Shown here piece by piece: positions 3,677-8,614 of a DNA stretch of 10,728 bases. Both the position numbers and the translations under genes were made by a program. The number at the start of each line of letters is the position of its first letter. Positions within the stretch are counted from its first letter, which is position 1. The notes under the pieces are model-generated. The model worked only from the letters and a program-made list of their open reading frames with translations, was not told the DNA's origin and did not search any database. The DNA comes from an uncultured Bifidobacteriaceae bacterium (lineage in GTDB: Bacteria > Actinomycetota > Actinomycetes > Actinomycetales > Bifidobacteriaceae): the NCBI GenBank assembly GCA_946891915.1, contig CAMPNN010000034.1, positions 1-10,728 on the forward strand, written 5' to 3'.

Positions 3677-3690
3677 ATAAGTAAGAAGAA

Positions 3691-3758
3691 AGATAAACAG
3701 ATAGCTAATCATATAGATAAGCAGACAGATAAGCAGACAGATAAGCAGACAGATAAGC
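3691..3758. repeat. 12-bp tandem repeat (AGATAAGCAGAC), about 5.7 copies
   Basis: Three exact copies of AGATAAGCAGAC run from 3715 to 3750, followed by a partial copy to 3758. Two diverged copies in the same 12-bp register lie at 3691-3702 (AGATAAACAGAT) and 3703-3714. The repeat is between a lipoprotein gene and the solute-binding gene, about 140 bp upstream of the latter's ATG. Such repeats often change copy number by slippage. Confidence 0.9.
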
Positions 3759-6795: not shown

Positions 6796-6880
6796 CCTGC
6801 CCTGCCTGCGTCAATCGAGACGCAGGCAGACCTCGCTCAGGTTGGAAGCACACTGTGCTTCCAACCTGAGCAAGCTCGGC
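6796..6880 (-). repeat. 85-bp double-hairpin element, copy A
   Basis: The plus strand shows hairpin 1, CTGCCTGCGTC / GACGCAGGCAG (6802-6812 and 6819-6829, 6-nt loop), then hairpin 2, a perfect 37-bp palindrome (6835-6871) with arms GCTCAGGTTGGAAGCACA and its complement around one base. A second copy of exactly the same length is at 7566-7650. The strand is given as minus because the copy lies directly downstream of the minus-strand tRNA-Ser terminator, as copy B does for truA. No open frame over it is convincing as a gene. Confidence 0.85.
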
Positions 6881-6881
6881 A

Positions 6882-6930
6882 GAATAAAAAAGCTTCAAGC
6901 GCAAAATGCAGCTTGAAGCTTATTATTCTG
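6882..6930 (-). terminator. Rho-independent terminator of tRNA-Ser
   Basis: On the minus strand AAGCTTCAAGC and GCTTGAAGCTT pair around a 10-nt loop (6890-6921 with flanks) and run into a T-tract (TTTTTT, complement of 6886-6891). An outer stem of GCAGAATAA (6880-6888) and TTATTCTGC (6923-6931) extends it. It begins immediately after the tRNA 3' end. Confidence 0.85.
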
Positions 6931-7016
6931 CGGATGAAGCGAGATTCGAACTCGCGGAGGATTTTACCCTCACACGCTTTCGAGGCGTGCTCCTTAGACC
7001 GCTCGGACATTCATCC
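6931..7016 (-). tRNA. tRNA-Ser, anticodon CGA
   Basis: The 86-nt minus-strand sequence folds as a class II tRNA: acceptor GGATGAA / TTCATCC with discriminator G, D-stem TCC/GGA, anticodon stem CACGC/GCGTG around loop CTCGAAA (anticodon CGA, reading UCG), long variable arm GAGG/CCTC, and T-arm GCGAG-TTCGAAT-CTCGC. The long variable arm and the G discriminator fit serine. CCA is not encoded and must be added after transcription. The gene stands alone, with its own terminator directly downstream and a possible promoter upstream. Confidence 0.96.
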
Positions 7017-7063: not shown

Positions 7064-7176
7064 TTGTAAACCATGCCGCGAATATAAATTCATGGCGCGT
7101 TGAAACACATAGCAGACGTTGCGCGCAAATGTGTACTTACACACCACCCAACGCTCGCGCTATAAGCGCTCGCTAT

Positions 7177-7223
7177 GAAACTCGCGTTGGAAGTCCACTG
7201 GACTTCCAACCTGAGCGAGTTTC
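7177..7223. repeat. Diverged single-hairpin relative of the double-hairpin element, copy C
   Basis: GTTGGAAGTCCA (7186-7197) and TGGACTTCCAAC (7199-7210) pair around one base; outer arms GAAACTCGC (7177-7185) and GCGAGTTTC (7215-7223) extend the stem, leaving a CTGA bulge on the right side (7211-7214). The inner hairpin, the central CACTG and the CCTGAGC after the right arm match elements A and B. The first hairpin of A and B is not present. Confidence 0.75.
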
Positions 7224-7281
7224 CGCTCCGAGTTGCTTTCGCGCTACGCTCTATGTGCGGAGGCAGGTCGTCGTGCAAACT

Positions 7282-7297
7282 CCGGAAAATTTTCCGG
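7282..7297. repeat. Perfect 16-bp palindrome
   Basis: CCGGAAAATTTTCCGG is a perfect inverted repeat without a spacer. It ends 17 bp before the first unit of the tandem palindrome array. It could be a protein site or part of the same composite region; nothing more can be said from sequence. Confidence 0.6.
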
Positions 7298-7314
7298 CAA
7301 ATGTTCAATAAAAA

Positions 7315-7506
7315 CGATTATTCCTTTACATCGTTGTAAAGAAAAAATCGAAATCAAGACAAAAAACGATTAAAACTTTACAACCGTGTAAAGTTTCGAT
7401 CGAATATCAGCCGAAAAACGATTAAAACTTTACAGCAGTGTAAAGGAAATGTCGAAATCAAGCCAAAAAACGATTATTCCTTTACACGAGTGTAAAGGAA
7501 TAATCG
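7315..7506. repeat. Tandem array of four 36-bp palindromes at 52-bp period
   Basis: Units start at 7315, 7367, 7419 and 7471. Each is CGATTA-N3-CTTTACA, a 4-nt centre, then TGTAAAG and an imperfect complement ending TCG. Centres differ in every unit: TCGT, ACCG, GCAG, CGAG. The core CTTTACA-N4-TGTAAAG is identical in all four, while arm middles vary; unit 4 is fully symmetric. Spacers are all 16 bp, close to AAATCAAGCCAAAAAA. Fifty-two bp is about five helical turns, so cores fall on one face of DNA. On the minus strand each unit is followed by a T-run, so the units also resemble terminators downstream of truA. I do not recognise the element. Confidence 0.95.
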
Positions 7507-7565
7507 CGCGCTAAATCGCAGCGCTCAAGCAGGTCGTCAGCGTACACCAATCACAACCAAACTAA

Positions 7566-7650
7566 CCTGCCCTGCCTTCGTCTTTATTGACGAAGGCAGA
7601 CCTCGCTTGCGTGGAAAGTCCACTGGACTTTCCACCTGAGCAAGCTCAGC
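7566..7650 (-). repeat. 85-bp double-hairpin element, copy B
   Basis: Hairpin 1 is CTGCCTTCGTC / GACGAAGGCAG (7572-7582 and 7589-7599, 6-nt loop). Hairpin 2 is GTGGAAAGTCCA (7611-7622) pairing with TGGACTTTCCAC (7624-7635) around one base, with an outer stem GCTTGC/GCAAGC and a CTGA bulge. Compared with copy A, paired positions change together. The TGA stop codon of truA lies inside this copy (7646-7648). Confidence 0.85.
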
Positions 7651-8614
7651 GAATCGAAGTGACTTCTCGCGCATTATGCAGCTCGAAGTCGTCGATTCGC
7701 AACTCAGCCGAATCGCGGCGAGCGCGAATCTGCTCAGCACGCGACGCAAGTTCCTCATCCGGCGGATACGCCACATACTCCAAAGTCAACCCATGCGGAG
7801 CAATCGGACCAGTAGAACCCTCTCGAATCGGCCTATTAATCTTATCAACAAACCAATCAATCGAACGCTTGCCACAACCAATCTGCACAGAAGCTTGCAC
7901 AAGCGAGCGCACCATGTTATGCGCAAAAGCATCAGCAACAATCGTAAACTCAATCAAGCCCTGCTCAACAGGCGGCACGCAACCAGTTTTAAGCTCAACG
8001 CGCGAATCTCCCAAACTCTCGCCCACTCTCTCCCAGCGAGCCTCAATCACCTTGCGAATCGTAGTACCACCAGGATTTGGACGCGCAAAAGAGCCAAAAT
8101 CATGAAGCCCAAGCATAAACTGCGCAGCCGCATTCATAGCGTCAACATCCAACACATCGTCAAGCTGCAAAACAAAACCGCGCATACGAGGATCACGCAT
8201 AGCCTTACAAGAACCATCCGAAATTCGGTACACGTAAGTGCGCTCCAGCGCAGAAAACCTAGCATCAAAACCGCAAGGCGCCACACTCACACCGTGCAGC
8301 GAAATATCTTGCGGCAAAACGTGACGCAACCTGTACTCAAGCGCAGCAACTCCATCCAACCCAGTATGCCCAATACAGCGCTGCAAAGTCTCTTCAGAAA
8401 CATCAAGATGGCAAACCTGATGCGAAGCATGAACGCCAGTATCCGTGCGACCGGCAACAGTAACGCGAAGAGGCTCGTTTACATCACACTCAGGTACGCG
8501 CAAAACCATGTGCAAAGCCGACTCAAGTTCACCCTGGACGGTGCGCAAAACCGGCTGCTTAGCCCAACCGTAAAATCCGCCGCCATCGTAAGCTAAATCT
8601 AAGCGAAGTCGCAT
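7646..8614 (-). CDS. truA: tRNA pseudouridine synthase A (TruA)
   Basis: TruA converts uridine to pseudouridine at positions 38-40 of the tRNA anticodon stem-loop. Seen here: MRLRLDLAYDGGGFYGWAKQ at the N-terminus, the catalytic motif AGRTDTGVHA (54-63, nucleophile Asp58), FDARFSALERTYVYRI in the middle, and FAHNMVRSLVQASVQIGCG near the C-terminus. At 322 residues it is longer than the ~270 of E. coli, mostly through internal insertions and a charged tail (RAEQIRARRDSAELRIDDFE). The start at 8612-8614 has GGAAAGG 6 nt upstream. It begins 27 nt after the hydrolase gene and is probably co-transcribed with it. The last codons run into a repeat element, which supplies the stop codon. A 306-codon open frame on the opposite strand is a shadow. 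Confidence 0.96.
   Translation of the reverse strand: MRLRLDLAYDGGGFYGWAKQPVLRTVQGELESALHMVLRVPECDVNEPLRVTVAGRTDTGVHASHQVCHLDVSEETLQRCIGHTGLDGVAALEYRLRHVLPQDISLHGVSVAPCGFDARFSALERTYVYRISDGSCKAMRDPRMRGFVLQLDDVLDVDAMNAAAQFMLGLHDFGSFARPNPGGTTIRKVIEARWERVGESLGDSRVELKTGCVPPVEQGLIEFTIVADAFAHNMVRSLVQASVQIGCGKRSIDWFVDKINRPIREGSTGPIAPHGLTLEYVAYPPDEELASRAEQIRARRDSAELRIDDFELHNAREVTSIR

What the first reader, a model, noticed from the sequence alone, without database searches (positions are those of the whole stretch)
7315..7506. Four palindromes at an exact 52-bp period with a fixed core and a different tetranucleotide centre in each
Seen: all four units keep CTTTACA and TGTAAAG exactly, spacers are all 16 bp, yet the centres are TCGT, ACCG, GCAG and CGAG, and the arm middles (TTCC or AAAA types) vary. 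A fixed-length, free-sequence centre between conserved half-sites is the pattern of a dimeric DNA-binding protein or a selected hairpin. Fifty-two bp is about five helical turns, so all cores face the same way. No regulator or mobile gene lies beside it. This could be an operator cluster, a nucleoid or segregation site, or an unknown selfish repeat.
Basis: partly seen in the sequence, partly recalled or inferred. Interest (0 to 1): 0.75.

Follow-up and report, generated by a model that had tools for sequence, protein, structure and literature searches.

The report
Gardnerella-specific tandem palindrome repeat family
The four look-alike palindromes are one copy of a family of short repeat arrays scattered between genes in several Gardnerella-type genomes; they look like paired protein-binding sites carried by spreading, non-coding repeats, and no function has been shown for them.

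Summary
Window 7315-7506 holds four 36-bp imperfect palindromes with CTTTACA-N4-TGTAAAG cores, separated by 16-bp spacers. They belong to a dispersed family: I analysed 73 arrays (178 units) from seven related genomes plus the window. A sequence model finds 7 to 79 hits in 7 of 112 genomes of the same genus group, one weak hit in an eighth, and none in G. piotii. In internal units the core is conserved while centre and outer arms vary. The core arms do not covary, so a selected hairpin is unlikely and a dimeric double-stranded DNA site fits better (inference). The centre is not free: 70% G+C. At shared sites, species differ by whole 52-bp units. At the window's own place, five other species join truA almost directly to the tRNA-Ser flank; the window has ~595 bp of mixed repeats there, the array among them. 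No transposase searched for follows the arrays; I saw no target duplication and no promoter preference. The closest published analogue found is Neisseria dRS3/NIME. I judge it a new member of a known kind, intergenic palindromic mosaic repeats.

The parts
7315..7350 (+). unit 1, 36-bp imperfect palindrome, core 7324-7341, centre TCGT
7351..7366 (+). 16-bp spacer 1 (family consensus about AAATCTCGCCAAAAAG)
7367..7402 (+). unit 2, core 7376-7393, centre ACCG
7403..7418 (+). 16-bp spacer 2
7419..7454 (+). unit 3, core 7428-7445, centre GCAG
7455..7470 (+). 16-bp spacer 3
7471..7506 (+). unit 4, core 7480-7497, centre CGAG; arms perfectly complementary (16 of 16)
7107..7700 (.). ~595-bp block of mixed repeats that contains the array and is missing between truA and the tRNA-Ser flank in L002-L006
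7263..7306 (-). flanking modules X (GCAGGTCGTCG...) and P (CTCCGG..CCGGCAAATGTTC palindrome), seen beside some other arrays
7507..7540 (+). flanking module CGCGCTAAATCGCAGCGCTC..GCAGGTCGTC, also beside arrays L251 and L256, and with one change L261
7649..7700 (-). palindromic module that forms the last ~17 codons of the window's truA; the same residues (within 302-322) recur at nine other loci

Best explanation
The array is one copy of a Gardnerella-type family of dispersed, non-coding intergenic repeats. Shown: the unit is 52 bp (a 36-bp palindrome plus a 16-bp spacer); at shared positions, species differ by whole units; at this locus the array sits in a block of several repeat modules that five other species lack. 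Inferred: the block was gained here and not lost in all the others. Inferred: the conserved double half-site CGAY..CTDTACR-N4-YGTAHAG..RTCG is kept because a homodimeric protein binds it as double-stranded DNA. Inferred: tandem duplication (slippage or unequal exchange) changes unit number, and recombination or an unseen transposition moves arrays together with neighbouring modules. The protein and any benefit to the host are unknown; a dRS3/BIME-like passenger that at most attracts a nucleoid protein, gyrase or an integrase is my preferred reading.
For: 70 of 75 groups lie between two called genes. Unit difference at the same place: G006 two units, G003 and G004 one; G006 six, G002 and G007 two; G002 three, G003 one; G007, G002 and G004 two each. 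Steps within 74 groups are 52 (97 times), 73 (3), 50 (1), 41 (1), none 104. Core information 1.65 bits per column against 0.44 for the centre, 1.02 for the outer arms and 0.98 for the spacer, in 40 internal units of 29 arrays (the twelve-unit array, not fully in register, is left out). No covariation overall: 73.1% of cells paired against 72.1 +- 0.9 shuffled, 71 of 500 as high; in 145 units the core has 123 one-sided breaks and 29 wobbles against 2 compensated cells. Block absent in five species: aligned truA end and tRNA flank are 5 bp apart in L002-L006.
Against: No binding protein was identified. Units were found through their core (<=3 mismatches), so core conservation is partly built in. 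In the outer arms there are 126 compensated cells beside 457 one-sided breaks, and pairing exceeds the shuffle mean at positions 4, 7 and 8 (at 7 above all 1000 shuffles: 59% against a maximum of 57%); a similar excess at 4, 7 and 8 across the spacer, where no stem is expected, suggests kinship between units. Two measures lean upwards in the thinned set (25 and 27 of 500 shuffles as high), and real units fold slightly better than re-dealt halves (-7.9 against -7.4 kcal/mol, below all 20 re-deals). No target duplication or enzyme was found, so movement as such is not shown. Several sites are shared between species, so present mobility is unproven. Nine further stretches fetched hold mostly single units (8 of 9 groups), so tandem arrays are less general outside G007 and G002 than the 73-array set suggests.
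Confidence: 0.6

Rival explanations
1. Recombination or insertion target: the palindrome with a variable centre is the site of an integrase or transposase, as dRS3 is for the Nf1/MDA phage, or the 48-bp stretch between two centres is a miniature transposon with CTTTACA ends.
For: Half-site plus variable centre resembles dRS3 ATTCCC(N8)GGGAAT; some arrays share flanking modules; a near-clean presence/absence pair between G003 and G002.
Against: Y1 transposase in 0 of 9 genomes; IS256 matches in 3 of 9, and in the four loci looked at I saw no pair of half-sites as ends; the IS110-type family gives only weak partial matches in 5 of 9 (within positions 2-43 of 87); rve in 4 of 9, not following the arrays. 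No match in the phage and plasmid collections or, for one extended pattern, in IMG/VR. The window's four centres all differ; elsewhere neighbouring centres are sometimes equal, as duplication would also give. Other transposase families were not searched.
Confidence: 0.2
2. Host-useful binding array: sites for a nucleoid, gyrase or terminus protein (arrays lie beside a dif-like site in four species).
For: Conserved core and shared positions; arrays in G002, G003, G006 and G007 lie beside a dif-like sequence (recognised from memory) that maps to the cumulative GC-skew maximum of G. piotii.
Against: G. piotii has none, and G008 (GED7760B) only one one-mismatch pattern match; arrays map to many parts of the G. 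piotii chromosome, few to its first 200 kb; the dif neighbourhood may be one inherited insertion.
Confidence: 0.13
3. Transcribed hairpins: terminators or RNA stabilisers.
For: Unit 4 of the window folds into a perfect 16-bp stem (-19.8 kcal/mol) and the spacer holds an A-run, so one strand ends in Ts; convergent gaps are 15 of 70 classified groups against 84 of 655 gaps of at least 80 bp in G. piotii, a mild excess not tested further.
Against: No covariation in the core; one-sided changes break the stem in many units; 42 of 70 classified groups lie between genes in tandem; no Rfam match in the window at gathering thresholds.
Confidence: 0.05
4. Operator cluster of a local transcription factor.
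For: Dimeric site geometry.
Against: No preference for divergent gaps: 13 of 70 classified groups against 117 of 655 in G. piotii; no regulator family among seven window proteins, two of which match nothing in Pfam; arrays at tens of places.
Confidence: 0.02

Closest known systems
Neisseria dRS3 repeats in neisserial intergenic mosaic elements (NIME)
   Same: Short repeat with conserved inverted arms and a free fixed-length centre, in intergenic arrays between other repeats; passages of PMC3898611 and PMC3046118 seen.
   Different: Other sequence and lengths (6-N8-6 against 7-N4-7 within 36 bp); the RS units between dRS3 are 30-160 bp, here the spacer is 16 bp; dRS3 is a phage integration site, here no such enzyme is known; almost 700 copies against tens.
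REP elements and BIMEs
   Same: Extragenic palindromes, here in tens of copies, in mosaic clusters.
   Different: REPs carry an unpaired GTAG or CGTC tag, and GTAG REPs often a RAYT (passages of PMC3733652 and PMC2817692); no such tag is in the consensus and no Y1 transposase was found. CGTC REPs lack a known transposase too.
Pneumococcal BOX elements (boxA-boxBn-boxC)
   Same: Tandem array with variable unit number, in clusters with other repeats (passages of PMC3049150).
   Different: BOX has boxA and boxC end modules, terminal inverted repeats and target duplications and a predicted folded RNA; here end modules are shared by only some arrays and the core arms do not covary.

Membership tests
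dRS3/NIME | ATTCCC(N8)GGGAAT repeat | tested here: not met
   core is CTTTACA-N4-TGTAAAG
dRS3/NIME | intergenic mosaic with other repeat units | tested here: met
   modules P, X, Q, R around the window array; P or X beside part of the other arrays
dRS3/NIME | target of a phage integrase (IS110/492-like) | tested here: inconclusive
   only weak partial PF02371 matches in 5 of 9 genomes; their relation to arrays was not examined
REP/BIME | GTAG or CGTC tag at one end | tested here: not met
   unit ends are CGAY/RTCG on both sides, judged by eye on the consensus
REP/BIME | RAYT (Y1 transposase) in the genome, for GTAG REPs | tested here: not met
   0 of 9 genomes with PF01797
MITE | terminal inverted repeats with target-site duplication at empty sites | tested here: inconclusive
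   no duplication seen at the window block or the G003/G002 pair, but flanks are diverged
BOX element | fixed A and C end modules around tandem B units | tested here: not met
   P within 100 bp of 19 of 73 arrays, X of 13 of 73
structured RNA / terminator hairpin | compensatory base changes in the stem | tested here: not met
   core 2 compensated cells of 1015; outer arms mixed, 126 compensated and 457 one-sided breaks of 1305
operator array | bound by a regulator | not testable with these tools
   needs a binding assay

The most novel reading that the evidence does not exclude
The units are sites of an undescribed Gardnerella homodimeric DNA-binding or recombining protein that both keeps the half-sites intact and drives the spread and 52-bp amplification of the arrays, so that array-bearing and array-free species differ in a whole chromosome-binding system.
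Probability: 0.17. Interest if true: 0.65.

Novelty: new member of a known kind. Interest (0 to 1): 0.4.

Why it matters
It gives Gardnerella-type bacteria a defined family of intergenic repeats that differ in unit number between species and lie, here, in a block that lengthens a pseudouridine synthase gene. It offers possible typing markers, a likely source of assembly and annotation trouble, and a concrete bait for finding an unknown DNA-binding protein. The rows listed by my searches of an open-access paper library showed no description of it; four of those lists were cut (20 of 129, 15 of 25, 12 of 763, 15 of 305), and closed-access papers were not searched.

Tried and rejected
RNA hairpin: tested by per-pair shuffles, compensated-cell counts and an independent pair counter; not supported in the core, mixed in the outer arms. 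Pairing across the spacer (right arm with next left arm): none in the core; a small excess at positions 4, 7 and 8 like that within units. Helical periodicity of conservation: not significant. Rfam on the window: no match at gathering thresholds. Y1, IS256, IS110-type and rve families: no candidate mover; Phage_integrase matches occur in 9 of 9 genomes, array-free ones included. Inverted half-sites around a gene as transposon ends: the pairs printed are mostly halves of units in separate groups; the genes between were not identified. tRNA preference: 12 of 75 groups lie within 500 bp of a tRNA; the only background computed, 2.8% of the whole G. piotii contig, is not a fair intergenic one, so no claim. 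A G. piotii near-match (CATTACA-GCGT-TGTAATG) occurs once and looks, by eye, like an ordinary terminator. The DNA search found matches in 7 of 9 genomes: none in G001 (which the pattern and the model do hit) or G008, and in G. piotii only one, at E 9.8e-4, to query positions 5-27, mostly outside the array. Papers: PMC3733652, PMC2817692, PMC3049150, PMC3898611 and PMC3046118 were seen as passages only; all others as search listings. Rows dropped before counts: two single-site groups (L235 at 740, L284 at 7081) are in the 75 but not in the 73 arrays; nine stretches fetched (9 groups, 10 units) are in neither; some of the 18 single-unit groups (e.g. L267) may be chance. The arrays come from listed hits, not from an exhaustive scan.

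Full report
Observation. The window holds four CTTTACA-N4-TGTAAAG palindromes exactly 52 bp apart (7315-7506), within 36-bp imperfect palindromes separated by 16-bp spacers. Seven matches with up to 3 mismatches stand against a mean of 0.56, and 0 of 200 shuffles reached seven. The array lies between a tRNA-Ser gene (6930-7016, minus strand) and a tRNA pseudouridine synthase gene (7646-8614, minus strand; PF01416), which I call truA from general knowledge. No own genome is held for the window. That protein is 89% identical to its match in strain NR047 and 85% to those of G. vaginalis PSS_7772B and G. greenwoodii, so I take the window to be from a Gardnerella.

A family, not a single site. With up to one mismatch the core pattern occurs 71 times in G007 (strain NR010), 29 in G002 (NR047), 19 in G006 (NR021), 18 in G003 (G. 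swidsinskii), 8 in G005 (1500E), 6 in G004 (G. greenwoodii), 4 in G001 (PSS_7772B), 1 in G008 (GED7760B) and 0 in G009 (G. piotii); the backward control gave 1 in G003 and 0 in the others (NR047 and NR021 are titled Bifidobacteriaceae bacterium, the others Gardnerella). The same search gave 0 in one genome each of B. ruminantium, B. moukalabense and Pseudoscardovia radai. In a scan of 112 genomes of the genus group, 16 had a match, seven of them a single one; G055 had 8 in a different arrangement. A sequence-only model built from 43 thinned units of other loci finds 8 of 112 genomes at E <= 1e-4: the seven listed first above with 7 to 79 hits each, and G112 with one weak hit; the filters were strict and at most 52 stretches per genome were scored, so counts are lower bounds. 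The window units, not in the model, score down to E 1.5e-15. A 221-base query from the window matched nothing in the phage and plasmid collections, and an extended pattern nothing in IMG/VR.

Anatomy. I analysed 73 arrays with 178 units: 28 arrays in G007, 16 in G002, 11 each in G006 and G003, 3 in G004, 2 in G005, 1 in G001 and the window; 18 have one unit, 25 two, 20 three, 8 four, one six and one twelve. Nine more stretches from G001, G003 and G005 hold nine groups, eight of them single units. In 40 internal units from 29 arrays, mean information is 1.65 bits per column in the core, 1.65 in the outermost CG pairs, 1.02 in the outer arms, 0.98 in the spacer and 0.44 in the centre. The units were found by their core, so some of this is built in; but of 102 steps within groups 97 are 52 bp, the rest 73 (3), 50 and 41, and none 104, so no internal unit had dropped out.

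Hairpin or double-stranded site. In 145 distinct oriented units the share of Watson-Crick pairs between the arms is close to what re-dealt letters give at each of the seven core positions; in the outer arms it is above the shuffle mean at positions 4, 7 and 8, and at 7 above all 1000 shuffles, with a like excess across the spacer. At the core there are 123 one-sided breaking cells and 29 wobbles against 2 compensated; in the outer arms 457 one-sided breaks and 67 wobbles against 126 compensated. On the thinned alignment 73.1% of cells pair against 72.1 +- 0.9 in shuffles (71 of 500 as high); cells with both sides changed (25 of 500) and the covariation score (27 of 500) lean upwards, as related sequences can. 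Real units fold a little better than re-dealt ones (-7.9 against -7.4 kcal/mol, lower than all 20 re-deals). I conclude that the core half-sites vary independently, as expected of a site read by a dimer on double-stranded DNA, and not of a selected hairpin; the outer arms leave a small open question. That a protein binds is inference.

Place and inheritance. Of 75 array groups, 42 lie between genes in tandem, 15 convergent, 13 divergent, 4 undetermined and 1 touches a called ORF beside a run of N; G. piotii gaps of at least 80 bp are 454, 84 and 117 (home-made gene caller). Several places are shared between species. At one, G006 has two units and G003 and G004 one; at another G006 has six and G002 and G007 two. 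G002 has three where G003 has one; G007, G002 and G004 share a two-unit array with closely similar flanks. G003 has three units where G002 shows a near-exact empty place (5-bp gap). So species differ by whole 52-bp units at shared positions. In G002, G003, G006 and G007 an array lies beside TTTGACATAACGTACATTATCGG (one change in G007), which I take from memory to be the dif site; in G. piotii nearly the same sequence lies at the cumulative GC-skew maximum.

The window's own place. In L002-L006 the truA end (GAGTTATAG or GAGTTATAA) is followed at once by CGTTTCAAC.., with 5 bp between the aligned pieces, where the window has about 595 bp (7107-7700). L001 has a shorter insert of about 120 bp that begins with the same module. 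The block holds the array and other palindromic modules, and its module next to truA adds about 17 codons to that gene; those residues recur at nine other loci, G. piotii and GED7760B among them (L055-L063). The simplest reading is that the array was gained here as part of a mosaic. P modules lie within 100 bp of 19 of 73 arrays and X modules of 13 of 73, mostly in G007 and G002. I saw no target duplication.

Movers. PF01797 gave 0 of 9 genomes. PF00872 gave 3 of 9, without a pair of half-sites as ends in the four loci examined. PF02371 gave weak matches to about half the profile in 5 of 9, rve 4 of 9, one of them G. piotii, Phage_integrase 9 of 9. None follows the arrays.

Comparison with the known. 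The nearest published design I found is the Neisseria dRS3 repeat, ATTCCC(N8)GGGAAT, almost 700 copies in intergenic mosaics and an integration site of a filamentous phage (passages of PMC3898611 and PMC3046118). REP elements differ by their tags and RAYT (passages of PMC3733652 and PMC2817692), BOX elements by their end modules (passages of PMC3049150). The Gardnerella family works like these but is a member of none by sequence. The rows listed by searches of the paper library showed nothing on it (listings only, four of them cut).

Verdict. A real, clade-limited intergenic repeat family with dimer-site-like conservation and unit-number differences, lying here in a mosaic block. Its partner protein and any use are open.

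Noticed in passing
window 7646-7700 and L055-L063: A repeat module has lengthened the pseudouridine synthase gene by about 17 codons in the window and in L001 (match to residue 322 against 305 in L002-L006); the added residues recur at nine other loci.
   Followed up: partly
window 6840-6874, 7181-7219, 7606-7644: Three copies of a second palindromic module (GTTGGAAGTCCACTGGACTTCCAAC type) whose two arms, by eye, change together between copies; a better hairpin candidate than the array given.
   Followed up: no
   Followed up: partly
L238, L262, L277, L279: An array lies beside a dif-like sequence in four species.
   Followed up: partly
L243:2862-3532: Twelve-unit array with a higher-order pattern: three steps of 73 bp, i.e. 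21 bp more than the usual 52.
   Followed up: no
window 3682-3758 and 891-950: Other short tandem repeats (12-bp and 9-bp periods).
   Followed up: no
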